Below are positions 6,052 to 26,617 of a stretch of DNA of 36,099 bases, piece by piece. The stretch covers positions 1 through 36,099 of IMG/VR virus record IMGVR_UViG_3300005337_000036; one strand, 5' to 3'. Position 1 is the stretch's first letter; each line of letters starts with the position of its first letter. Made by a program: the position numbers and the translations under genes. Below the pieces are notes generated by a model. The model was not told the origin of the DNA. It ran no database searches and saw only the letters and a list, made by a program, of their open reading frames with translations. This stretch comes from a virus.

Positions 6052-6527
6052 GTGACCTCGAAGCCGGCTTGTGCGAACGAGAGCTCCACGGCGTCCTGCA
6101 GCACTTGCTGGACTTCGAGGAACTTCGCCTCAACCGCTTTCTGGATGAAGTGCACGGGCTGCGTGCCGGGGTGGTCGACTGACTTCGCGAATGCGAAGCC
6201 GCCCTCGACCGGCCAGCGCAGCGCGCGCCGGTACTTGGGTTTGATCTTGTGTGGTCGCGTCCCGAGTTCGACGAACACGGCGTGCGGCGCGCCGGCGCTC
6301 ACCGTGCACTGCAAGTCTTGGCCATCGAAGGAGCCTTGAACTTCGTCTCGCCCGATCGAATTTGTTAGCAAACCAGTGCGGTCTTGGTAGCCGTGGTTTT
6401 GCTTGGCCTCGATTGCGACGAGGTCGCCACCGAGCTCGAGCGCCATCGGCACGTATTTGCCGAGGTTCGAGCCAGCGACGCGGAGTGCCGCGACTGCTCC
6501 GCTCACGTCCGCGTCGAAGACGAGCAT
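6048..6527 (-). CDS. HK97 gp10-like neck / tail completion protein
   Basis: 159 residues. The family hallmarks are visible in order: 'YQDRTGLLTNSIGRDEV' (about 47-63), the core 'AGAPHAVFVELGTRPHKIKP' (79-98), 'ALRWPVEGG', and 'HPGTQPVHFIQKAV' (about 118-131). The F-V-E-x-G-T-x-P-H sequence followed by an H-P-G-T-x-P motif identifies the HK97 gp10-like family, involved in joining head and tail. It sits between the two SAP-motif proteins and the adaptor gene, as expected in the connector module. Confidence 0.87.
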   Translation of the reverse strand: MLVFDADVSGAVAALRVAGSNLGKYVPMALELGGDLVAIEAKQNHGYQDRTGLLTNSIGRDEVQGSFDGQDLQCTVSAGAPHAVFVELGTRPHKIKPKYRRALRWPVEGGFAFAKSVDHPGTQPVHFIQKAVEAKFLEVQQVLQDAVELSFAQAGFEVT

Positions 6528-13001: not shown

Positions 13002-14623
13002 CAGGCAGCGGGCTCGATTTCAGCAGCGTTGTCGTCCGCAGGCACGTCGTCAAGCTCGGCCTGCAAAGCGGGATCCTCGCTCGTCTCGCCGGCCTGCTTC
13101 TGCGCAGCCGCGGCATTGAGCTTCAAGTCGCGTTGCTCTTCGAGCTCGTCCATGATCTCGTCGACCTGGTCCTGCGGTAGGTTCGGGAGCATCTTCTCGA
13201 TGACGCGTTTCTTCATCCACATCTCCGCCGTCGCGGGCAGGTCGATAGAGATCGCATCGAGCGCGTTCTTGATGTCGCTTGCGAGATCCTCGACTCTGAA
13301 GTCGGTGGGCGCTGTGACGCTCGTCGCATCGAGCGACGTCTCACTCACGTTGAGTGCAGGTGCGACGATCGCATAAGACCGCTTTTCCGCACGCGCGAGC
13401 TGCTTTGCGAAATCACCGAGCCTTCGGTTCGTCTTTTCGAACTCGTAGGCGCGCGCGATGCCGCTCGCCGCTTCAAGCGTGTGGCCGCGCTCGTACTCGA
13501 CGCGCGCGAGGCGGTAGATCTCCTGGACCGTGTTCGCGATCCGCGTCTCGTACGTCGCAGCGACCGACTCCGGCGGTGCGAGCCACTTGTACTCGTGGGT
13601 TGCTTCCGCGGGAAGTCCCACCGCGTTGTCGGTGCCGCCCACGAGTTCGTCTGGCGGCGTCGCGCCGACGTACGGCACCTGCAGCATCGCAAACACCTGC
13701 TGGCGCAGATGCTCGTCGAGCTCGGAGTTGAGGTTGAAGAGCCTGCGGCCCTCGACGGCGACCGCGTCGACCATGCCTACGCCGCGCACTTCGTCTTCGG
13801 CGCACGGCTTGTGACGCCACAGCACGATCGGCACCGTCTTGAATGGATGCGATCGCGTAACGGGCGGGGATACCGTTTCCTCCTGGGCTCCCTCCGCCTT
13901 GATGACCGTGTACATCACCACGCGATCGGGCCACCAGATCGAATAACGCTCTTCATGCACGCACGGTCCGAGCGGATCGGGCCGGCGGTCATACTGAATG
14001 CGGGTCTTGGCCCAAATGAACGCGCCCGCGTCGTCGACGTCCCAGTCGAGGAGGTTTGCGGGGAAGAGCGGGATCGCGCGTAGCTGCACCCCGCTGTTGT
14101 CGTTCTGCGAGCGAGTCTGCCCCTCGGGCGCGGCGCTCTGGTCAAAGAGCATTGGCGTCCAGCCGAGCAGTGCGCAACGCGGCTTCACCACGTCAGCGAG
14201 GAGCTCGTCCCAGCTCTTGCCCTGCCCGTCGACGTTCTTCTGCCAGTCCTGAATCTGCTGCGGGACCTGGTCCCGAATCATCTCGCGCTTGAGGACGTAC
14301 GAAACGAGGATGTCGAGAATCGCCTCGACGTAGTTTAGGTAGTGCGCCACAGCGCGGCGGCGCTCGAACTTCACGTCATCCTCGCGCGGATAGCGATCGA
14401 GGTACGTCGTCGTCTGGGCATTGGCTCCGACGAGCCCCCGCACTGTGACGTCGCTGTACGCCTGCGCGGCCCACCCGAGATAGCTCACCGCGGGCTGCTT
14501 CACCTTGCCCGCAAAGCCGCCGGTGCCTGTCACCGCGTCGAGCAGGAAGCGATGCCAGACGAGCTCCTCCTGGTAATCGTCGCGCGTCGCGCGCAGCTGG
14601 TCGATGAGCTTGTCGGTCGGCAT
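13001..14623 (-). CDS. Portal protein
   Basis: 540 residues, directly after the large terminase, with the stop and start fused as TGATG. The start chosen (MPTDKLIDQLRATRDDYQEE) is the one coupled to the terminase stop. Features: an N-terminal helical segment, 'YLNYVEAILDILVSYVLKRE' (about 96-115) as seen in portals, a beta-rich wing/stem region with IWWPDRVVMYTVI, a stem helix in the 'LVGGTDNAVGLPAEATHEYK' neighbourhood, and a C-terminal acidic tail (DDVPADDNAAEIEPAA). The portal forms the dodecameric vertex through which DNA enters. Resembles DUF4055/SPP1-like portals; subfamily uncertain. Confidence 0.85.
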   Translation of the reverse strand: MPTDKLIDQLRATRDDYQEELVWHRFLLDAVTGTGGFAGKVKQPAVSYLGWAAQAYSDVTVRGLVGANAQTTTYLDRYPREDDVKFERRRAVAHYLNYVEAILDILVSYVLKREMIRDQVPQQIQDWQKNVDGQGKSWDELLADVVKPRCALLGWTPMLFDQSAAPEGQTRSQNDNSGVQLRAIPLFPANLLDWDVDDAGAFIWAKTRIQYDRRPDPLGPCVHEERYSIWWPDRVVMYTVIKAEGAQEETVSPPVTRSHPFKTVPIVLWRHKPCAEDEVRGVGMVDAVAVEGRRLFNLNSELDEHLRQQVFAMLQVPYVGATPPDELVGGTDNAVGLPAEATHEYKWLAPPESVAATYETRIANTVQEIYRLARVEYERGHTLEAASGIARAYEFEKTNRRLGDFAKQLARAEKRSYAIVAPALNVSETSLDATSVTAPTDFRVEDLASDIKNALDAISIDLPATAEMWMKKRVIEKMLPNLPQDQVDEIMDELEEQRDLKLNAAAAQKQAGETSEDPALQAELDDVPADDNAAEIEPAA

Positions 14624-16263
14624 CAGAGGCCTGAAATGCGCATGCCCGTCACGCGCGGCACGGCTTGAGAGCGCAAGAGCCAGGCGCCCGCCCAACTGAC
14701 GTAGCGGTCGTCGCGGCTTGCGTCTTTGCCGCCGTCGCGTTTGCCCCGGGCGCGCGGTTTGCCGTCGTCATCACGCACGATGCTGCGGCACTCAGCGAGC
14801 GTCGCTGCGTCGGGCGTCCATGCGGCGCCTTCGCGGATCGCGTGCGCAAGATCGTCCCAAAGCACGGGACGCGTCGCCTTGTTCGTGTTGAAGCCAGGTC
14901 GGCCGTCGTCGGCGTAGTAGACCGCCGGGTACTTGATCGCTTTGAGTAGCCGCTCAAGCGTCGCGTGGCCGTGGTTGTTGCGCTCCGGTGATACGACAGC
15001 ACGGTTGTAGAGCCAGCCGAGCACCGCGAGTACGGCGCCGAAGTCGCCTGGCTCGGTCGAGTCAGACCACCACGTCGCAACGGTCTCGCCGCTCACGGCG
15101 TCGAGCACGTGCGCCGAGCTTCCGTCGCCCGAGACGCCTTCGCTGACGTCGCCGAACACGACGTAGCGCCGGCCAGGGCGCGGGTTTACGTAGATGCGCG
15201 CTGGCTCGAACTGCTGCCCTGCGTAGGTGATGGGTGCGAGGCGAACCGGTTCGCGCACGAGGTCAGCAATGCGGTCGAGCACCTCGGGCTCAAACCACGC
15301 GTTGCCGATCGCGCGGAAGCACGTGTCGATGTCGATCGGGTACTCTTGCAGCGCCCGCTCGAGCCCGACCTTTGGATCGTCGACCCAGCTGCGCCACCGA
15401 GCGATCTGCCCGTCGTCGCACCCGAGGCCTCGAAGCTTTGTCTCCCATGGGTCTGGCTTGCCCTGGGAGCCGCGACGCACCTGCGGGTCAAACCCTGGTG
15501 GAAGAGCGTCGACGCGGTATTCGGCGTGCTGCCACCACGCAAAGAAGTGCAGCCGCATTCCCGTGCGGCCCTCTCGCGCGGCCTGCACATCTTGGTAGAA
15601 GAGCCCTCCGACGCCGTTCGGCGTGCTCTCGATGACAATCTCACCATCGTCGGGCACGGCGCCGAGCACCGCGCCCATTGTCTCTGATGCAGCGCCCCAG
15701 AACGCGACCTCGGTTGCGTGGAGCCGATGAATCGTTCCCGAGCGGCCTTTCTTCTCAGCCGCGGCGCTCGTCGCGCCTGACTCCACGACGCGCACTGCGC
15801 TACCCGTGTGCGCAAATACCAGCTCGCGCTTGTTGCTGTACTGACGCTTGGGCAGCTTGCCGACGTACTCGAGGCAGTCGGCGAAGTGCCGCAGCGTCAA
15901 GTGCATGTTCTCGACGAGCTTGCCGTCGTGCGCGATCACCCAGACGTTGGTGCCTGGATTGATCAGCGCGTAGTGCAGGTCCCGCGCGAGCTCGAGCGTC
16001 GTGAAGCCGACCTGGCGCCCCTTGAGCACGAGGTCGCGACCCGAGCGTTCCGCGTTGAAGCGGCGCTGCTCCTCGTGCCACGTCTCTGGACGAAAGTAGA
16101 ACTCGGGTCCGCTCTTGGGGCGGATTTTGATGAGCGCGCAGAAGTGCTCGAAGCTCTCGAACGCAGACTCAGTGGACTGCTTCGCCCCGATCTCCCTCAG
16201 CTGTCTCAGTAGCCACCCGTGCGATACCGGTGACTTCGGCGAGGGCGCGGACAAGTTCTGCAT
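14623..16263 (-). CDS. terL: Terminase large subunit
   Basis: 546 residues. ATPase domain: an atypical Walker A 'LVLKGRQVGFTT' (78-89), a Walker B-type segment ending ATEVAFW (183-189) with the catalytic Glu, and IESTPNG (211-217) as the coupling motif. Nuclease domain (RNase H fold): RYVVFGDVSEGVSGD (366-380) with the first metal-binding Asp at 372, then further acidic positions and the C-terminal DDRYVSWAGAW. Together these cut and package DNA into the prohead through the portal. The only ATG lies 95 nt inside the small subunit gene; a TTG at codon 4 is the only close alternative. Packaging strategy cannot be told from the sequence. Confidence 0.93.
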   Translation of the reverse strand: MQNLSAPSPKSPVSHGWLLRQLREIGAKQSTESAFESFEHFCALIKIRPKSGPEFYFRPETWHEEQRRFNAERSGRDLVLKGRQVGFTTLELARDLHYALINPGTNVWVIAHDGKLVENMHLTLRHFADCLEYVGKLPKRQYSNKRELVFAHTGSAVRVVESGATSAAAEKKGRSGTIHRLHATEVAFWGAASETMGAVLGAVPDDGEIVIESTPNGVGGLFYQDVQAAREGRTGMRLHFFAWWQHAEYRVDALPPGFDPQVRRGSQGKPDPWETKLRGLGCDDGQIARWRSWVDDPKVGLERALQEYPIDIDTCFRAIGNAWFEPEVLDRIADLVREPVRLAPITYAGQQFEPARIYVNPRPGRRYVVFGDVSEGVSGDGSSAHVLDAVSGETVATWWSDSTEPGDFGAVLAVLGWLYNRAVVSPERNNHGHATLERLLKAIKYPAVYYADDGRPGFNTNKATRPVLWDDLAHAIREGAAWTPDAATLAECRSIVRDDDGKPRARGKRDGGKDASRDDRYVSWAGAWLLRSQAVPRVTGMRISGL

Positions 16264-16714
16264 ACGACTGTGGCGGCATCAGGGGGCGTACCCCCTCGAG
16301 GAGTTTCTCAAGCTCGCCTTGCACGCGCACCTCGAGGGCGTTCGCGAACATGCCCTCGTGCTTGCCAAGGAGCTCGAGCGCGCGGACAGCGGTCGCGCCG
16401 TCGAAGCGGTAGACGCCGGGCTTGCCCTTTTCCGCGGCGCGAACGACTTCGGCCTGCATCGCGCGGTTTGCGACGTCGTTGAGGCGGTTCAAGATCGAGA
16501 ACCGACGCGAACCAACGAGGCGCTCGTCGCCCTCCTCGTGCTCACGAATCGCGGCCTGGATCTCCGGCCGGCGCAGTAGCCGGTGCGCGATGAACTTCGC
16601 CGCGCTCTCCTTGTAGCCAGCTTCGCGCGCAGCGGCGGCGCCATTGCGGCAGATACAAAACTCTCGAACAAACGCGCGCATCCGCGCCGTTAGGGGTTTG
16701 GGAGACGGGGGCAT
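16169..16714 (-). CDS. terS: Terminase small subunit
   Basis: 181 residues from the ATG shown. The N-terminal part is a helix-turn-helix of the terminase small subunit type: LTARMRAFVREFCICRNGAA (8-27), AAREAGYKESAAKFIAHRLL, then RRPEIQAAIREHEEG. The C-terminal part is helical and would form the oligomer core. It recognises the packaging site and feeds DNA to the large subunit, with which its gene overlaps. No clear ribosome binding site precedes the ATG, and the same frame stays open for 60 codons upstream with coding-like character (KGRPSLATTGKARGAKPTPT), so the start may lie upstream. Confidence 0.88.
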   Translation of the reverse strand: MPPSPKPLTARMRAFVREFCICRNGAAAAREAGYKESAAKFIAHRLLRRPEIQAAIREHEEGDERLVGSRRFSILNRLNDVANRAMQAEVVRAAEKGKPGVYRFDGATAVRALELLGKHEGMFANALEVRVQGELEKLLEGVRPLMPPQSYAELVRALAEVTGIARVATETAEGDRGEAVH

Positions 16715-16894: not shown

Positions 16895-17359
16895 CTAATC
16901 ATCCGCGTCGGCCTGAGCGACGAGCGCGAGGTCGAGCAGGTCGGGAAACCTGTCTCTCAGCCTCGGCAACGTCGTGCACCACTGCCCGCCAGCGGCGAGC
17001 CGGAACCCGACCTGGCACGAGCATGCCCCTCCGGATCGAGCGGGGCACGGCGGGGCGCCAGGGCGGCTCGGACACTGGCTCCGGCGCATCCAGCGGCGCG
17101 CGCGTCGCGTGCTCCACCGATCACAGCCGAGTGCGCGGCAGGGTTTGCGCGGTAGGCCGCGTTGCTCCGCCTGCGCACACTTCGCGCATGGCGAATCGAG
17201 TACGCGGGCGATCATCGCGGCGGTGATCAGTTTCGCCGACCGCAGCCCCTCAACGCCGGCAGGAGCGTCGTCGTCGCGCTCGGGCTCGTCGCCAAGATCT
17301 AGGCCGAGCTGCGGTTGTCGCCACAGCTCGGCCGTGTTGCCGCTTCGCACTCCGGTCAT
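16895..17359 (-). CDS. Hypothetical Cys-rich protein
   Basis: 154 residues. ATG preceded by GGAG at 7 nt. The N-terminal half looks natural (ELWRQPQLGLDLGDEPERDD, then GLRSAKLITAAMIARVLDS), followed by 'CAKC...CRALGC', which could bind zinc, then a Cys/Arg/Pro-rich middle and an Asp-rich end (LVAQADADD). It shares its frame with the terminase small subunit, separated by a TAG. TAG is used as an ordinary stop elsewhere in this phage, so recoding is not indicated. Possible regulator of late genes by position; no family recognised. Confidence 0.5.
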   Translation of the reverse strand: MTGVRSGNTAELWRQPQLGLDLGDEPERDDDAPAGVEGLRSAKLITAAMIARVLDSPCAKCAQAEQRGLPRKPCRALGCDRWSTRRARRWMRRSQCPSRPGAPPCPARSGGACSCQVGFRLAAGGQWCTTLPRLRDRFPDLLDLALVAQADADD

Positions 17360-17410: not shown

Positions 17411-18463
17411 CTACTCGGCGGGGGCTTTGGCGTTTTCGGGGGGATGTGTATATACGTGCGGCCGGACCACGATGGGCGCCCCCTGCAGCCCCTTCCAGTA
17501 CGGCTCGATGTGGATGAACTTTCGCTCGCGCCGACCCTGGCCGTGCGCGTGGTGCTTCCAGTGACCGCGCACCATGGTTTGCACCGTCATGGGCCCTGTA
17601 AATCCCTCTCGACCGCGCTCCACGAACGCCCTTGTCTTCATCCGCAGGTCAACCTTCACCGGGCTACCGCAACAATATTCATTGGTCGTTGGGTACAGCC
17701 CGCCGCGCCGCGCGTTGCGACGAGCCTTGTTCGATGGCCTCCGCACCATCCCGTCGCTCTGGAATGCCATGCAGACAGCTCCGATCAACGGAAAGACCGT
17801 GCGTAGAGTTCGGTGAACTGACTCGTCCAGTTCCCACCTAAATCGCTTGGTGCCACACAAGTCGCCGATCTGGAGCGGCATGGTCATCCGCAAGTGCACG
17901 TTTTCAGGATGAACGAAAACCACAAGCCACAGACCCATTCTCGACACATGCTGCGTCACTTCGCCGCGGACAGCTTCCTCGCCTACCGGCTCCTTCGCAT
18001 CGGCCCTTCCCCATCTGGCGACTCTCACATCTCGCAACGCTGCAGGTCCCCCTCCGTCGCCCCAGTCAAACACGAAGCCCAGGTCACTCGGCAGTTCTAG
18101 AGCGAACGACGACCATGGAGGAACAACGAACTCGTGTAACTCGCGAGGAATGCTCGTCCATGCCATACATGCGGCCCATGAAGATTCTAAGCGCACCACC
18201 GGGCATGCGCTGGCCCCCCAGCTACCAAGCCACTTGAGATAATCACAGTGCGCAACGAACTCGTGATCCGACTGACTCACTTCGCTCAACCCGCCGCGCT
18301 GTGCTCGTGATTCCATATTTCTGACACACTCGGCATAGAAACCCGTGTCAGGCGCAGTCGTGGATAGATGGTTGAGGTACCTGGAGAATCCCGCTTCTGC
18401 GTCGTCTCCGTCGTAGAAGCGTGCAAACCCTTTAGCCATCCTGAATTCATCAGATGTCGGCAT
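17411..18463 (-). CDS. AcrVA2-like C-terminal domain protein (possible anti-CRISPR family member)
   Basis: 350 residues, ATG overlapping the helicase gene by 14 nt. The N-terminal part is helical and contains FVVPPWSSFALELPSDLGFV (about 118-137). The C-terminal part ends with a basic block MVRGHWKHHAHGQG, then KFIHIEPYWKGLQGAPIVV. The 'RGHW-x-H/Y-x-G-x-G...I-P-W' layout is what I recall from the end of AcrVA2, an inhibitor of Cas12a production, and its wide family of phage and plasmid homologues. GC content in sampled 60-nt lines is 55-60% versus about 73% in the neighbouring helicase, suggesting recent acquisition. Family membership is an inference from memory; anti-CRISPR activity is untested. 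Confidence 0.5.
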   Translation of the reverse strand: MPTSDEFRMAKGFARFYDGDDAEAGFSRYLNHLSTTAPDTGFYAECVRNMESRAQRGGLSEVSQSDHEFVAHCDYLKWLGSWGASACPVVRLESSWAACMAWTSIPRELHEFVVPPWSSFALELPSDLGFVFDWGDGGGPAALRDVRVARWGRADAKEPVGEEAVRGEVTQHVSRMGLWLVVFVHPENVHLRMTMPLQIGDLCGTKRFRWELDESVHRTLRTVFPLIGAVCMAFQSDGMVRRPSNKARRNARRGGLYPTTNEYCCGSPVKVDLRMKTRAFVERGREGFTGPMTVQTMVRGHWKHHAHGQGRRERKFIHIEPYWKGLQGAPIVVRPHVYTHPPENAKAPAE

Positions 18464-19853
18464 CCATTCGTCTCCCCTTGTCCGCGATTCCGACTGGCCA
18501 CTCTTCAAACGTTCGATGGTACTTCGCTGCAGCAAACGCAGCCGGCATGCCGTGGTCGCGAGTCAGCCGCTGCAAGCGGTTTAACTCGGCAGCCTTGATC
18601 GAAGCTGCCAGCATAGGCGCCCACGGAGACCGTTCACCGAACTGCCGCTGATACGCTTCGAGCGCAGCATCAACTGTCAAATGTCGTGCAGAGATCGCCG
18701 CCGCAAGCTCATCCCACCGAGCGCGCTTCGGATCCGCCCCCGTTTCTTCGACCGCACCTGCATGCGTGCCGACAAGTTCCAGTCCGAGTACCTTCGGCAA
18801 CCGCTGCCCCCGCTCAACACCGTCGCTCTCGCGCTCAGAGGACTCGCCCATGCCCGAGCCGGCAAGCGAATACTCCCGATCGTCGGTGGGCAACCCGTGC
18901 TTGTGCGACACGCCGGTCAGGTCCAGCAGTAGTGCGCGCTTCTTCCGCGGGTGCGCCCGCAATGCGCGCCCAACAATCTGCACATACGTGCTCGCGTGGT
19001 CGCACGTTCGCGCGAGAACGATCGCCGACACGCGCGGCACGTCGACGCCCTCCGTCAGTGCGTACACGTTCACAACCACGGTGAGCGAGCCGTCAGCGAG
19101 CCTACGTAGCGTCTCGTCGCGCTCAGCCTTTGGTGTCTTGCTGTGGACGACTGCCGCCGCGATCTGCGCCTTGCTGAAGCGCTTGACCATTCGCACTGCG
19201 TCGTCAACGCGCCGAACGTATACGAGCGCAGGGCGCCCGTTCGCATAGCGCTGATACGCTGCGACCGGCTCTTGCGCGAGGTCAATGCCGAGTCGGTGAG
19301 GCGGCCGAAGCACATCACAACCGACGATGTGACCTGCCGCGATCAGTTCCTCATAGCCCACGACAACGACAAGCTTCTCGAACACGTCACCCATCGCGCG
19401 CCCGTCCGCGCGCTGAGGCGTCGCCGTGAAGCCGACCATGGGCGTGCGCTTGTACGCATCGAGCACAGTGCGCCACTCGTCGGCTGCGTAGTGGTGCGCT
19501 TCGTCGGGCACGATCAGATCGGCCTTGGGTAACTCAACGCCCGCACCAAGGAGCGACTGCACGCTCGCCACCTGCACCCGCGCGTCGGGCGTGCGGCGCT
19601 TGCCAGGGAGGATGACTCCAACGTCGCGACCGAGCTCAGCCTGCACTCGACGAGCAACATCGAGCACGATCTCGCGTCGGTGCACGAGGAACAGCGCACG
19701 CTTGCCCTGCTTCACGGTTCGAGCGAGCAGGTTCGCCGCCATCGTGCCTTTGCCCGCTCCCGTCGGGGCGACCGCGAGCACCCGCGTTGCGCCCGACGCG
19801 AGCGCGTCGCTGATCTTGCGCAGACCTCGCGCCTGGTAGTCGCGTAGCGTCAT
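18450..19853 (-). CDS. SF2 DNA/RNA helicase (DEAD/DEAH type)
   Basis: 467 residues with the full superfamily 2 motif set: Q-like 'LRDYQ' at the N-terminus, Walker A APTGAGKGT (29-37), motif Ib/'ASVQSL' near 96-101, Walker B/motif II PDEAHH (116-121), motif III GFTATPQR (141-148), motif V 'TEGVDVP' (267-273) and motif VI QIVGRALR (292-299). A C-terminal region of about 150 residues has no recognised domain and includes a zinc-free charged segment. No nuclease domain is fused. Phage helicases of this kind (UvsW-like or restriction-type helicases) take part in recombination, branch migration or origin remodelling. Start overlaps the upstream gene by 4 nt. Confidence 0.92.
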   Translation of the reverse strand: MTLRDYQARGLRKISDALASGATRVLAVAPTGAGKGTMAANLLARTVKQGKRALFLVHRREIVLDVARRVQAELGRDVGVILPGKRRTPDARVQVASVQSLLGAGVELPKADLIVPDEAHHYAADEWRTVLDAYKRTPMVGFTATPQRADGRAMGDVFEKLVVVVGYEELIAAGHIVGCDVLRPPHRLGIDLAQEPVAAYQRYANGRPALVYVRRVDDAVRMVKRFSKAQIAAAVVHSKTPKAERDETLRRLADGSLTVVVNVYALTEGVDVPRVSAIVLARTCDHASTYVQIVGRALRAHPRKKRALLLDLTGVSHKHGLPTDDREYSLAGSGMGESSERESDGVERGQRLPKVLGLELVGTHAGAVEETGADPKRARWDELAAAISARHLTVDAALEAYQRQFGERSPWAPMLAASIKAAELNRLQRLTRDHGMPAAFAAAKYHRTFEEWPVGIADKGRRMDADI

Positions 19854-20518
19854 CGCCCACCCTCCCGCCAAAGCCTCTCCGCCTCAATGCGCAGCTCGGC
19901 CGCCTGCTTCTCGGCTTGCAACAGCCGCACGCGCACGTGCTCGGGCTTCTTGCTCGCAGCAACCTCGTTCAGCATGCGCCGCGCGAGTGACAGCGACGCG
20001 GGCTGCCCGCGCTTCGCCGCTTCGGCCGCGGAGGCTTCGAGCAGTCGCTGTCCCGCGACCGTGATGTGATAGACCGAGCCGATGCGCCCTGGCTTGCCAC
20101 CGCGCGCCCACTGCTCACCAAGGTCGCCGTAGTAACACTCGAGCACTGCCACCGCGGTCGGGCTCTTTCGCTCAACAGTCCTGAGGCGCTTCGACACAAG
20201 GGCATGCAACTCCATCGCGCGACTGTCCGGCACGTAACCGCTCGCGCTCCTCGTCTCCGCCGTCGGTCGCGCAGTAAGGTCGTGCTCGGGGTAGACCACG
20301 ACGCCGTCGACGACGTCCGCCCATGCCGAACGAGCGCGCGGGATGCGCTCGGCCTCGAGCTCATAGCGCAGCGACCGCTCGGAGTAGCGCAACTGTCCCG
20401 CGTGACCGAAGAGATCAGCGTGCTCGAGCATCGGCCCGACCGTGCTGCGCTCGAACGCGCATTGCCCTTGCGAGAAAAACCACGCCAACTGCGCTTCGTC
20501 GCGCGGTGAGAGGGTCAT
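19850..20518 (-). CDS. Hypothetical protein between MTase and helicase
   Basis: 222 residues, translationally coupled to both neighbours by ATGA overlaps. N-terminus LSPRDEAQLAWFFSQGQCAF; middle AVLECYYGDLGEQWARGGKP (about 131-150); long charged C-terminal helix (AEKQAAELRIEAERLW). The 'W-x3-FSQGQ' and 'Y-G-D-L-G-E-x-W' segments look conserved, but I do not recognise the family. A DNA-binding or regulatory role would suit its position between a DNA methyltransferase and a helicase; this is conjecture. Confidence 0.65.
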   Translation of the reverse strand: MTLSPRDEAQLAWFFSQGQCAFERSTVGPMLEHADLFGHAGQLRYSERSLRYELEAERIPRARSAWADVVDGVVVYPEHDLTARPTAETRSASGYVPDSRAMELHALVSKRLRTVERKSPTAVAVLECYYGDLGEQWARGGKPGRIGSVYHITVAGQRLLEASAAEAAKRGQPASLSLARRMLNEVAASKKPEHVRVRLLQAEKQAAELRIEAERLWREGGR

Positions 20519-21114
20519 TCCGCAGCCTCCGATAGCTCGTTGCCGTAGCACTGCCAGCCCGCGCGACGCCGACGCGCGAACATTTCCACAAAGGGCCCGC
20601 CCGGCACGAGGCGTTCTGCGATCTCGTAGATCGCATCGGGCTTGCGCGAGTGCACCTTCTTGCCGTTCTCCGTTGGCACCGGCGCGTCGAACACGGACCG
20701 CACTGCGCGATCCGCAACCTTCACACGGCCACGCGTCGCGAGCAGGCAAACCTCGTGCGAGGCGCGCGTATACCGGCCAAGCCCGAAATGCAGCTTGCCC
20801 GTCGCGGTGAGCTTGCGCCATACGATCTCGCTCTTGACCGTGAAGCCCCACGCGGTGATCACCGTGAACGCTTCGCGCTGCATTGAGGCCACGCGCCAGA
20901 ACAGCAGCAGGCAATCGTCTGCGAGCGGCGGCAGCTTGAAGAAGCACAGCTCGCGCTCGCTCATGCATGCGTAGTTTTTGGCGGCGCCGCGAGACTTGCC
21001 GGGGAGCGAGTCACGAAACTGCCAAGGGCAGTCCACGAGCAGCACGCGCGCCGGGCCGACGCTCGTGACACGCGACGCACCGTTACCATCGAAGCCGTGT
21101 AGCACTCGCTTCAT
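20515..21114 (-). CDS. MT-A70 family adenine-specific methyltransferase
   Basis: 199 residues. Catalytic motif IV appears as LLVDCPWQF (25-33), a DCPW variant of the DPPW signature of MT-A70 N6-adenine methyltransferases. Downstream are LLLFWRVASMQREAF, AWGFTVKSEIVWRK and the binding region 'VEMFARRRRAGWQCYGNE' near the end, all in the order of this class. In phages such enzymes methylate DNA adenines, which can protect against host restriction. It transfers methyl groups from S-adenosylmethionine; the target site is unknown. The ATG overlaps the previous stop within a repeated 16-nt element. Confidence 0.9.
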   Translation of the reverse strand: MKRVLHGFDGNGASRVTSVGPARVLLVDCPWQFRDSLPGKSRGAAKNYACMSERELCFFKLPPLADDCLLLFWRVASMQREAFTVITAWGFTVKSEIVWRKLTATGKLHFGLGRYTRASHEVCLLATRGRVKVADRAVRSVFDAPVPTENGKKVHSRKPDAIYEIAERLVPGGPFVEMFARRRRAGWQCYGNELSEAAE

Positions 21115-21126
21115 AGGCCGAGCTCC
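21111..21126 (-). repeat. 16-nt repeated coupling element, copy 1
   Basis: TCATAGGCCGAGCTCC on the plus strand; an identical copy lies at 21329-21344. On the coding strand it reads GGAGCTCGGCCTATGA, supplying a Shine-Dalgarno (GGAG), the last codons of one gene (Glu-Leu-Gly-Leu), and the ATGA stop/start overlap of the next gene. It looks like a duplicated reinitiation module at the junction of unrelated genes. Confidence 0.7.
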
Positions 21127-21332
21127 TTTCGCGTGGCTGGGCGTGGCCAGCTGTGTGTGACCACGTCCGCAAGTCGCTCGTGACCCATCAGTCGAAGCGC
21201 GTGGACGCACCCTAGGCGCGCAGGCGTGTGCTCCCCGATCCAGTACGCATGCTGTCCCGTGCGCAGTTCACGCAGCGTGCACCGCGTCATGATGCGCTGA
21301 AGCAGCCACACGGAGCGTCCCGGCGTTGTCAT
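21111..21332 (-). CDS. Small hypothetical protein
   Basis: 73 residues, basic and His/Arg-rich, with LRTGQHAYWIGEHTPARLGC near the middle and a C-terminal KELGL that matches the end of the preceding gene product (MELGL). No family recognised. The ATG overlaps the previous stop inside the repeated 16-nt element, so expression should be coupled. Confidence 0.6.
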   Translation of the reverse strand: MTTPGRSVWLLQRIMTRCTLRELRTGQHAYWIGEHTPARLGCVHALRLMGHERLADVVTHSWPRPATRKELGL

Positions 21333-24580: not shown

Positions 24581-25431
24581 GGAAGCCGCTCCTTCAGCGT
24601 GAAGCCCGCCGCGTTCTTGTGACCGCCACCGCCGAAGCGCTTGGCGAGTACGCTCACGTCGAAGTCGCCGCGCGAGCGCAGGCTGTAGACGTAGGCCCCG
24701 TGGGCGTTCTGAAACCAGCCCACTGCGAAGGGCACGTCTTCGGCGAGTGCTCCGACGAGCTCGCTGATGCCAATGTAGGGGGCGTTGATGATCGGAACGT
24801 CGTCGTAGCCGGCGAACGAGGCGCGACGGGCCTGCAACTTCATCTCGCGCACATAGCGATCGATGTAGTCGAGTGCGCCTTGGCCACGGCGGGCCGCGTC
24901 TGTGAACGAGAGCTCCACGATCTCGTCCCACCGCTCGAAGCTCATTGGCTGCGACTGGATGAACGCGTTGACCTCGCGGCTGCGCTCGAGTTCCCACTCC
25001 CATAGGTCGCGGTCCTGGACATACCAAACCAGCCAAGGCGCTGACTGCTTCGGATAGCAGTAGTCCCATGCGAGCATCGCGCCCGACCGCGCCATGTCGA
25101 AGGTGCAGAAGTCGAGTCCCTCGCACGCGGACTGCGCGGTCTTATGGTGGTCGAGCACGACAAGCTCTGCCGCCGCGGCCTTGAGCTCGAGGAGCTGCTC
25201 GCGGCTCGTGCAAAAGTCGACCATCCACACACTACGACCTATGACATCGGGCAACTGCACGCGCTGACCATCGGGCGCGTAGTGAGCGGCGAAGAACTCC
25301 GCATCCATACCCACGTCCGCGGGCGCGCCGCCAACGAATGGTGGCCAATGACCGAACCAACGGCGCATGACCCAAGCCGCCGTGAAGCCATCGATGCAGT
25401 TGCCGTGATAGATCACAAGCGGCTTGTTCAT
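24577..25431 (-). CDS. DHH-family phosphoesterase
   Basis: 284 residues. N-terminal DHH domain: YHGNCIDGFTAAWVMRRWFG (8-27, metal ligands H9 and D14), VDFCTS (D72) and LVVLDHHKTAQ with DHH at 94-96. C-terminal DHHA1-type substrate motif FGGGGHKNAAGF (266-277). This is the arrangement of nanoRNase/pAp phosphatase (NrnA)-like and related phosphoesterases, manganese-dependent enzymes that cleave short oligonucleotides, pAp or cyclic dinucleotides. In a phage it could recycle nucleotides or remove a signalling nucleotide; the substrate cannot be told from sequence. Upstream and downstream genes overlap by 4 nt. Confidence 0.9.
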   Translation of the reverse strand: MNKPLVIYHGNCIDGFTAAWVMRRWFGHWPPFVGGAPADVGMDAEFFAAHYAPDGQRVQLPDVIGRSVWMVDFCTSREQLLELKAAAAELVVLDHHKTAQSACEGLDFCTFDMARSGAMLAWDYCYPKQSAPWLVWYVQDRDLWEWELERSREVNAFIQSQPMSFERWDEIVELSFTDAARRGQGALDYIDRYVREMKLQARRASFAGYDDVPIINAPYIGISELVGALAEDVPFAVGWFQNAHGAYVYSLRSRGDFDVSVLAKRFGGGGHKNAAGFTLKERLP

Positions 25432-25805
25432 GATGCGTCGTCCTCGTTGGCTTTGGGTGACACCAAGCTCAGCCGCGGCGGCGGCCGCAGACTGAGAACG
25501 CAGCGCTCGTCGTGCTCGAGCGTCTCGGGGCTCGGCCCACGCTCACCACAGCGCGGGCACGTCACCCAAGCTTCGATCACTGCCGTGTCGTGCAGTTCTT
25601 TGAGCCGCTCGCAGAGACGCCGCATGGTCGCGACCGCCTGCGTGCGCTCCATATCGGCGAGCTCGGCGCGGTTGACCTCGAGCTGCAGTGCGCGAGCGAC
25701 CTCATCGAGCAACGCGGGCGCATACTCGCGCGGCACCGTGCACGCTCGCACGATGGCCTCGGCCTGCTCGAGCACCTCGGGTGTGACGATGAGCGAGCCC
25801 GTCAT
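25428..25805 (-). CDS. Hypothetical protein with C2HC zinc motif
   Basis: 125 residues from an ATG with GGAG 7 nt upstream; an ATG two codons earlier lies too near the GGAG. A helical N-terminal part (LIVTPEVLEQAEAIVRAC, and 'DMERTQAVATMRRLCERLKE') is followed by WVTCPRCGERGPSPETLEHD then C, a CPxC-x12-H-x3-C knuckle. Acidic end NEDDAS. It follows the tRNA directly. Function unknown. Confidence 0.62.
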   Translation of the reverse strand: MTGSLIVTPEVLEQAEAIVRACTVPREYAPALLDEVARALQLEVNRAELADMERTQAVATMRRLCERLKELHDTAVIEAWVTCPRCGERGPSPETLEHDERCVLSLRPPPRLSLVSPKANEDDAS

Positions 25806-26617
25806 GCGCATGCTCCATGTGCAACAGGTGGCCGGGGCGGATTCGAACCGCCATCTGCGCCAGCACTTCGACGCCGCTCTGCCAGTTGAGCTACCGACCA
25901 CGAACGCGCCCATGCTTCGGGCGCGAACTCTCTTACAGCCGCGCGTTCACCGCTTGGAAGATCGGACGCAGCCGTTCGCACGCCTGGTCGATCTCCTCGG
26001 AGGTCGCACCCGCGCGGATCGCATCGACCATCTGCGCGTACGAAGCGCGGCGCTTGGCATCCTCGAGTCGCTGACGCTCGGCGGCTGCTGCAGCTTCGGC
26101 CTGCAAGCGTTGCTGTTCCGCTGCTGCAGCCGCTGCTGCTTCGGCTTGGGGGTCGGGCGCCGGTGATGTCTGTGTCTCGGCCATGCACATGTCCTTTCGC
26201 GATCGGGAAAACAAACGCCGTCTCTCCGGCTGTCACGTCTTCGGCTTGAACCCGCACATCGTGCGGTTGGGCCGCGGCTCGGTTTGCGACGTTCTCCCAG
26301 CACCAGAATCCAGTCGGTGCCATACCCGGTGTCTGTTCCACCGCGTCTCCCGTCACCGGCTCTACCCCCGTCGCCAATCGCAGGGGCAGTGTCGCGCGCC
26401 GGCTGCGCGCTTGTGCGTGGTGGTGTCCAGAACGCGAGAGCGCGTGCCTCACCCCGCCAGAGTTTTTCGTGCAGCCCCACAGGGCTACGAGTGCGAGCCC
26501 GATCACGAGTCCGATCAGCGCGACCGCGCCGACGAGTGCGTAGCGCCAGAAGTACCGCGCGCGATCGACCTCGGGGTGTTGCTGAAGCTCGGGGTCGTGA
26601 TTGTTCAGATCGGTCAC
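25802..26617 (-). CDS. Membrane-anchored small protein; 3' extent doubtful
   Basis: GTG start overlaps the upstream stop (GTGA). The first 50 residues are convincing: a polar start VTDLNNHDPELQQHPEVDRA, then a membrane helix (YALVGAVALIGLVIGLALVA). The frame then stays open to 25802, for 271 residues, but its last part runs antisense-like and Arg/Ser-rich across the Ala-rich gene at 25933-26184 and the tRNA. So only the part above about 26190 is likely real coding, and a lesion (frameshift) or a lost stop codon is suspected. Oddly, the distant TGA overlaps the next ATG as ATGA. Function unknown. Confidence 0.4.
   Translation of the reverse strand: MTDLNNHDPELQQHPEVDRARYFWRYALVGAVALIGLVIGLALVALWGCTKNSGGVRHALSRSGHHHAQARSRRATLPLRLATGVEPVTGDAVEQTPGMAPTGFWCWENVANRAAAQPHDVRVQAEDVTAGETAFVFPIAKGHVHGRDTDITGARPPSRSSSGCSSGTATLAGRSCSSRRASATRGCQAPRFVRADGRCDPRGCDLRGDRPGVRTAASDLPSGERAAVREFAPEAWARSWSVAQLAERRRSAGADGGSNPPRPPVAHGACA
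25828..25901 (-). tRNA. tRNA, probably tRNA-His (GTG), with irregular anticodon loop
   Basis: Cloverleaf on the minus strand: acceptor TGGTCGG/CCGGCCA (25894-25900 with 25829-25835), D-arm GCTC-AACTGGCA-GAGC with the GG pair, T-arm GGCGG-TTCGAAT-CCGCC perfect. A G at 25901 pairs with C at 25828, giving the G-1:C73 pair that is the identity mark of tRNA-His, and GTG lies in the anticodon loop. The anticodon stem GCGTC/GGCGC closes an 8-nt loop GAAGTGCT, one base too long and lacking U33; the variable loop is 4 nt. No CCA is encoded. Either an unusual functional tRNA or a decaying one. Confidence 0.72.
25933..26184 (-). CDS. Ala/Gln-rich coiled-coil protein
   Basis: 83 residues from the ATG with AAGGA 7 nt upstream; an earlier ATG two codons before is too close to that site. 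The sequence has an Ala-Glu-Gln repeat (QAEAAAAAAAEQQRLQAEAA, about 14-33) predicted as a coiled coil, and a natural C-terminal domain (YAQMVDAIRAGATSEEIDQA, then CERLRPIF). Its own ribosome site, unlike the coupled genes around it, suggests independent translation. It overlaps entirely with the doubtful end of the frame above. Confidence 0.68.
   Translation of the reverse strand: MAETQTSPAPDPQAEAAAAAAAEQQRLQAEAAAAAERQRLEDAKRRASYAQMVDAIRAGATSEEIDQACERLRPIFQAVNARL

What the first reader, a model, noticed from the sequence alone, without database searches (positions are those of the whole stretch)
17411..18463. Possible AcrVA2-like anti-CRISPR gene of lower GC between helicase and terminase genes
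The 350-residue product ends with an RGHW-x-H-x-H-G-x-G block and an IEPYWKG segment resembling, as I recall it, the end of AcrVA2 and its broad family. Hand counts on three 60-nt lines give 55-60% GC against about 73% in the adjacent helicase, consistent with acquisition from another source. It lies at the early/late boundary, a common place for accessory defence genes.
Basis: partly seen in the sequence, partly recalled or inferred. Interest (0 to 1): 0.68.

Follow-up and report, generated by a model that had tools for sequence, protein, structure and literature searches.

The report
Distant AcrVA2-family phage accessory gene
This phage gene makes a very distant cousin of AcrVA2, a protein with which phages destroy the messenger RNA of the bacterial CRISPR enzyme Cas12a, but the phage's likely hosts appear to lack Cas12a, so it probably attacks a different, still unknown target.

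Summary
The ORF is real (350 aa, ATG at 18463, Shine-Dalgarno at 18479-18472, 14-nt overlap with the helicase). Its GC is the lowest of the 28 ORFs compared (59.4% against 66.0% for the window), but the helicase is 65.3%, not 73%. No sequence search of the PDB finds AcrVA2. However, the profile of 49 homologs matches the AcrVA2 family (hhalign 93.5%, score 57 against at most 18 for 60 shuffles), one faecal-phage protein matches both profiles, and Foldseek searches with two AlphaFold models return only AcrVA2 (7CI1/7CI2) as significant, though with low TM-scores (0.36-0.44). It belongs to a sister branch (phrog_15934) of AcrVA2 proper (phrog_6160), split with 100/100 support, and lacks several AcrVA2-invariant residues. 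The branch occurs in at least 7 bacterial phyla and many phages. None of 33 genomes carrying it has Cas12a, nor do 237 Myxococcota genomes, the inferred host phylum. Two related phages lack the gene at this place, so it is accessory; one other phage keeps the helicase/AcrVA2-like pair. Best reading: a counter-defence protein working like AcrVA2 (binds a nascent peptide, triggers mRNA loss) on another target. Target and mechanism are inferred.

The parts
17411..18463 (-). AcrVA2-superfamily gene (phrog_15934 branch), 350 aa
   Evidence: ORF and translation; phrog_15934 E=7.5e-13; hhalign to AcrVA2 alignment 93.5%; Foldseek to 7CI2/7CI1 E=3e-6 to 1e-5
17489..17572 (-). Conserved C-terminal block, residues 298-325 (VRGHW...IEPYWKG)
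   Evidence: VRGHW, P321 and G325 invariant or nearly so in 49 homologs; conservation 0.64 against 0.16-0.27 elsewhere (partly biased because VRGHW seeded the searches)
18472..18479 (-). Shine-Dalgarno-like AAGGGGAG, 8 nt before the ATG, inside the helicase 3' end
   Evidence: sequence
18450..19871 (-). SF2 helicase gene (true start probably ATG at 19853), overlaps the AcrVA2-like gene by 14 nt
   Evidence: ResIII 3e-26, Helicase_C 5e-17; phrog_16 DNA helicase 2e-76; relative L182 begins at the same TLRDYQ
16895..17359 (-). orf154, conserved downstream neighbour of the variable slot
   Evidence: 76% identical in L182; 35% over 62 residues in Myxococcota contig L215; no family match
16169..16714 (-). 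Terminase small subunit
   Evidence: Terminase_2 5e-16, phrog_51 9e-26
14623..16263 (-). Terminase large subunit
   Evidence: phrog_2 1.5e-23; 53% and 47% relatives in two Myxococcota genomes
19850..20518 (-). orf372, 3' part (about residues 151-372 are real), conserved upstream neighbour of the slot in relatives
   Evidence: residues from about 148-151 on align beside orf154 in L182 and L215; the upstream part overlaps the MT-A70 gene
20515..21210 (-). MT-A70-type DNA methyltransferase gene
   Evidence: PF05063 1.6e-23; phrog_359 7.5e-53

Best explanation
The gene encodes a divergent member of the AcrVA2 superfamily, in a sister branch of AcrVA2 proper. It is carried as an accessory, host-directed gene in a variable slot between the replication and packaging genes of a tailed phage whose terminase relatives lie in Myxococcota. 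It most likely works like AcrVA2: a variable middle domain holds a short peptide of a target protein as it leaves the ribosome, and the conserved C-terminal RGHW block brings about destruction of the mRNA being translated. The target is probably a host defence protein other than Cas12a. Shown here: gene, homology, accessory status, conserved C-terminal block, no Cas12a in the genomes searched. Inferred: peptide binding, mRNA destruction, role of the C-terminal block, identity of the target, counter-defence purpose. My estimates: superfamily homology 0.93; host-directed counter-defence 0.65; AcrVA2-like mRNA destruction 0.45; Cas12a as target about 0.06.
For: hhalign of 49 homologs (A4) against 12 AcrVA2 proteins (A3): probability 93.5%, score 57.1 over 201 columns; 60 column shuffles reach at most 17.8; with the RGHW block cut off the score is still 25.9 against a shuffle maximum of 12.0. 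AcrVA2 identity is anchored by Shewanella phage Y11 ORF43, which matches PDB 7CI1 at 1.5e-72. Faecal-phage protein L082 matches the AcrVA2 profile at 1.7e-55 and the present family at 2.8e-9. Foldseek over PDB with the model of this protein (pLDDT 74.9, pTM 0.71): the only matches below 0.001 are 7ci2_A, 7ci1_A, 7ci1_B. Same result with a better model of homolog L006 (pTM 0.84). The viral fold search returns the AcrVA2 relatives of Erwinia phages RisingSun and Yoloswag and Dickeya phage JA13. Accessory: close relative L182 (62-90% identical neighbours) lacks the gene, its helicase being truncated and other genes standing there; Myxococcota contig L215 has orf372 next to orf154 without it. Not tied to Cas12a: 0 of 33 genomes carrying homologs and 0 of 237 Myxococcota, while the search works (1 of 369 Gammaproteobacteria). 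Fast divergence: helicase 54% but AcrVA2-like protein at most 27% identical between window and L011. The C-terminal block is the most conserved part also in AcrVA2 proper, collected without that seed (0.67 against 0.38-0.46). AcrVA2's nascent-peptide mRNA mechanism: PMC13131331.
Against: No direct sequence match to AcrVA2 in PDB for this protein or its profiles; the AcrVA2 HMM gives this protein only 3.5 bits. TM-scores are 0.36-0.44 with rmsd 11-12 A, so domain placement differs or is wrongly modelled. Of five residues invariant in the C-terminal block of AcrVA2 (H291, R293, H296, W301, G303 of L071) only two are kept (as H301, G308), although a neighbouring Arg matches R299. hhalign E-values are for one comparison; the shuffles are the better control. 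No functional data exist for any member of this branch. About half of the 33 host genomes lack a detected Cas1, so the target need not be CRISPR. The host phylum rests on terminase and structural-protein kinship alone.
Confidence: 0.55

Rival explanations
1. A true AcrVA2: it inhibits Cas12a by recognising its nascent N-terminus and triggering decay of cas12a mRNA.
For: Superfamily homology.
Against: Sister branch with 100/100 support; AcrVA2-invariant residues missing; no Cas12a in 33 genomes carrying homologs or in 237 Myxococcota genomes. Cas12a is rare everywhere (1 of 369), so absence is weak evidence on its own.
Confidence: 0.06
2. AcrVA2 fold, but a phage-internal role: a regulator or partner of the adjacent SF2 helicase, for instance in controlling translation or stability of phage mRNA at the early/late switch.
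For: Overlap with the helicase gene and the same helicase/AcrVA2-like order upstream of the terminase genes in the otherwise different 68.8-kb phage L011.
Against: Of the 20 helicase loci, L177 (the same contig as L011) is the only one with an AcrVA2-like gene within the fetched flank. Homologs elsewhere stand in other contexts: next to the integrase in Propionibacterium phage G4, beside a toxin-antitoxin pair and integrase on a Citrobacter plasmid. Related phages do without it.
Confidence: 0.2
3. AcrVA2-like counter-defence protein that inactivates a finished defence protein (another CRISPR effector or a non-CRISPR system) by plain binding, without mRNA decay.
For: A crystal structure shows AcrVA2 bound to an internal Cas12a peptide, 618-634 (7CI2; PMC13131331).
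Against: The reported in vivo mechanism of AcrVA2 is loss of cas12a mRNA; the most conserved block is the C-terminal one, not the middle domain.
Confidence: 0.17
4. Unrelated hypothetical protein; the RGHW motif is convergent.
For: No direct sequence search finds AcrVA2; low TM-scores.
Against: Homology signal persists without the motif (25.9 against a shuffle maximum of 12.0); AcrVA2 is the sole significant fold match in 350,542 chains, twice; bridge sequence L082.
Confidence: 0.03

Closest known systems
AcrVA2 (Moraxella; PDB 7CI1/7CI2; phrog_6160)
   Same: Length, order of secondary-structure elements, PxW/PW landmark (P116-W117), LR..P......C helix, C-terminal R-G-H-W...G block; carried by phages as an accessory gene
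   Different: About 12% identity in the structural alignment; H291, R293, W301 of AcrVA2 replaced; extra IxPYxKG block; no Cas12a found in likely hosts; target unknown
phrog_15934 (unknown function)
   Same: This protein is a member (E=7.5e-13); all 32 members of alignment A2 match it
   Different: Only the C-terminal 127 residues of this protein align; its N-terminal half is divergent
Propionibacterium phage G4 gp26 and PFR1/PFR2 homologs
   Same: Same branch; 42-49% identical in the C-terminal 60-80 residues
   Different: Stand between lysis genes and integrase, not after a helicase
IMG/VR contig 3300022223_000001 (L011)
   Same: Same helicase (54%) followed directly by an AcrVA2-like gene and then the terminase genes; the gene is also low in GC
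   Different: AcrVA2-like protein at most 27% identical; a ParB/MT-A70-like gene lies between it and the terminase

Membership tests
AcrVA2 superfamily (AcrVA2 plus phrog_15934 branch) | Profile-level homology over most of the length | tested here: met
   hhalign 93.5%, 201 columns, score 57 against shuffle maximum 17.8; bridge L082
AcrVA2 superfamily (AcrVA2 plus phrog_15934 branch) | AcrVA2 fold | tested here: met
   Only significant PDB matches are 7CI1/7CI2, two models; TM-score only 0.36-0.44, so topology rather than full superposition
AcrVA2 superfamily (AcrVA2 plus phrog_15934 branch) | C-terminal R-[GA]-H-[WY] block followed by G | tested here: met
   R299-G300-H301-W302...G308
AcrVA2 proper (phrog_6160) | Direct match to the AcrVA2 sequence or HMM | tested here: not met
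   No phrog_6160 hit, no 7CI1 hit, 3.5 bits to the AcrVA2 HMM
AcrVA2 proper (phrog_6160) | H-x-R-R-x-H-W/Y-H-x-x-W-x-G signature | tested here: not met
   This protein has T-M-V-R-G-H-W-K-H-H-A-H-G: first His, first Arg and later Trp absent
AcrVA2 proper (phrog_6160) | Groups with Moraxella/Shewanella AcrVA2 in the tree | tested here: not met
   AcrVA2 clade split off with 100/100 support
AcrVA2 proper (phrog_6160) | Cas12a present in hosts | tested here: inconclusive
   0 of 33 homolog-bearing genomes, 0 of 237 Myxococcota, search verified by 1 of 369 Gammaproteobacteria; the host itself is only inferred
AcrVA2 proper (phrog_6160) | Inhibits Cas12a through translation-dependent loss of its mRNA | not testable with these tools
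   needs an experiment

The most novel reading that the evidence does not exclude
AcrVA2 is one specialised twig of a large family, spread over at least seven bacterial phyla and their phages and plasmids, of proteins that recognise different nascent peptides and destroy the mRNA being translated. A common C-terminal effector block would be joined to a fast-changing recognition domain. The gene in this window would be such a factor aimed at an unknown myxobacterial defence protein, in hosts that have no Cas12a.
Probability: 0.35. Interest if true: 0.8.

Novelty: new variant of a known kind. Interest (0 to 1): 0.5.

Why it matters
Translation-dependent mRNA destruction by AcrVA2 is described as the first of its kind in prokaryotes (PMC13131331), with the decay machinery unknown. 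A sister branch in phages and genomes without detectable Cas12a suggests that the mechanism may be older and broader than anti-CRISPR activity. It gives natural variants for asking which part picks the target and which part destroys the mRNA. It also points to a so far unseen target in Myxococcota.

Tried and rejected
Pfam, NCBIfam and PADLOC: no hits for the protein, and only scattered chance hits among its homologs. PDB by sequence with the protein and three profiles: nothing, although the database contains 7CI1. The viral-contig scan with the single protein found nothing; the alignment-based scan found 64 loci. Idea that low GC shows recent acquisition: weakened, because the family as a whole has no GC deficit (median 0) and L011 keeps the gene pair with a similar deficit. 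Idea that the gene is tied to CRISPR hosts: 15 of 33 genomes have Cas1, no clear link and no background sample taken; the two Myxococcota genomes with the closest terminases have none. Marino et al. 2018 and the bioRxiv paper on AcrVA2 are not held, so the mechanism is taken from a review. Docked pocket residues of the Shewanella homolog (PMC10846135) were not used as a test, being docking only.

Full report
Observation. An intact minus-strand ORF of 350 codons plus stop occupies 17411-18463. Its ATG (18463) follows AAGGGGAG at 18479-18472, embedded in the end of the helicase gene, which it overlaps by 14 nt. The scan for promoters and terminators found nothing on the minus strand here, so co-transcription with the helicase is likely (inference). 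GC is 59.4% against 66.0% for the window, z = -3.4; GC3 0.67; codon-usage z = -3.0.

Family. PHROGs gives phrog_15934, unknown function, E = 7.5e-13 for residues 212-338. No Pfam, NCBIfam or PADLOC family matches. tblastn finds relatives in Propionibacterium phages G4/PFR1/PFR2, Corynebacterium phage phi16 and plasmids of Leptospira, Citrobacter and Shewanella. Alignment-based scans give 64 viral loci and 34 loci from bacterial genomes; those placed in the tree come from seven phyla. They share VRGHW-(K/R)-x-(Q/H)-...-G-...-I-x-P-Y-x-K-G; VRGHW served as a search seed, so its complete invariance is partly built in.

Link to AcrVA2. AcrVA2 proper was anchored by Shewanella phage Y11 ORF43 (PMC10846135), which matches PDB 7CI1 at 1.5e-72, and by tblastn relatives in Moraxella, Leptospira, Erwinia, Pasteurella, Lactobacillus and Dickeya phages; the five tested fall in phrog_6160. 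The Moraxella and Shewanella members end in H-I-R-R-G-H-W-H-x-x-W-x-G, and the other ten in close variants of it (A3). hhalign of 49 homologs of this protein (A4) with A3 gives 93.5% over 201 columns. Reversed and shuffled controls give at most 0.5% probability and score 17.8, and the signal persists without the RGHW block (25.9 against at most 12.0). L082, a faecal-phage protein in neither profile, matches A3 at 1.7e-55 and A4 at 2.8e-9. AlphaFold of this protein (pLDDT 74.9, pTM 0.71) searched against 350,542 PDB chains returns only 7ci2_A, 7ci1_A and 7ci1_B below E 0.001. The better model of homolog L006 (pTM 0.84) does the same; the two models share most of their alignment rows. TM-scores are low (0.36-0.44; rmsd 11-12 A), so the full-chain superposition is not settled. 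The viral fold library returns Erwinia and Dickeya phage proteins that are themselves AcrVA2 relatives. The tree separates AcrVA2 proper from the present branch with 100/100 support and puts this protein, on a long branch, in a 15-member clade of phages, Myxococcota and Acidobacteriota.

Surroundings. Transcription order is MT-A70 methyltransferase, orf372, helicase, AcrVA2-like gene, orf154, TerS, TerL, portal. In the close relative L182 (TerL 71%, orf154 76%, MT-A70 85% identical) the helicase stops after about 140 residues, and a gene resembling staphylococcal-type nucleases by eye, the orf372 homolog and another ORF stand before orf154; no AcrVA2-like gene is found. In Myxococcota contig L215 orf372 is next to orf154 with neither helicase nor AcrVA2-like gene. 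In the 68.8-kb phage L011 a helicase 54% identical is directly followed by an AcrVA2-like gene and, further on, the terminase genes. The gene is thus accessory, sits in a variable slot, and can travel with or stay beside this helicase. Its protein diverges faster than the helicase (27% against 54%), as expected of a gene in conflict with hosts (inference).

Host and target. The TerL has relatives of 53% and 47% identity in 2 of 237 Myxococcota genomes and nothing above 32% in 399 Pseudomonadota, so a myxobacterial host is likely. Cas12a (TIGR04330) is absent from 33 genomes carrying homologs and from the 237 Myxococcota. The search does find Cas12a, in 1 of 369 Gammaproteobacteria. Since Cas12a is rare everywhere, this shows only that the family's spread does not follow Cas12a. 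Fifteen of the 33 genomes have Cas1; the two genomes with the closest terminases have none.

Mechanism. For AcrVA2 the literature reports recognition of the nascent Cas12a N-terminus followed by loss of its mRNA, plus a structure with an internal Cas12a peptide (PMC13131331). In both branches the C-terminal block is the most conserved part, also in AcrVA2 proper, whose members were collected without that seed. I therefore propose a common effector block and a diverged recognition part. That proposal, and the counter-defence purpose, are inference; the homology and the accessory position are shown.

Verdict. It is not AcrVA2 proper, its target is probably not Cas12a, and low GC is weak evidence for recent transfer.

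Noticed in passing
L033:5185-6989: Two AcrVA2-like genes in tandem, overlapping at 6126, in one 149-kb viral contig; L010 also holds two copies. Suggests paralogs with different targets.
   Followed up: no
L182:1802-3909: Close relative of the window phage: helicase truncated after about 140 residues, followed by a small gene resembling staphylococcal-type nucleases (by eye only), the orf372 homolog and a further ORF in the same slot.
   Followed up: partly
L004:1398-4076: Citrobacter IncC plasmid pZY-2: an AcrVA2-like gene directly after a ribbon-helix-helix/RelE toxin-antitoxin pair and before a site-specific integrase and a Tn3 transposase.
   Followed up: no
L077:1201-2202: Erwinia phage RisingSun gp126 is annotated 'putative mycothiosynthase' but belongs to the AcrVA2 family; the annotation looks wrong.
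   Followed up: partly
window 19850-20968: The ORF overlaps the MT-A70 gene; its 3' part (from about 20518) is what aligns beside orf154 in relatives, so the real gene is about 221 codons.
   Followed up: partly
window 25827-25900: ARAGORN reports a tRNA-like structure with an undetermined four-base anticodon (agtg) on the minus strand, inside ORF 25428-25913; possibly spurious.
   Followed up: no
L214, L215: Two Myxococcota genomes (G959, G883) hold terminases 47-53% identical to the window's; L215 also has related portal, head and capsid genes, pointing to a myxobacterial host.
   Followed up: yes
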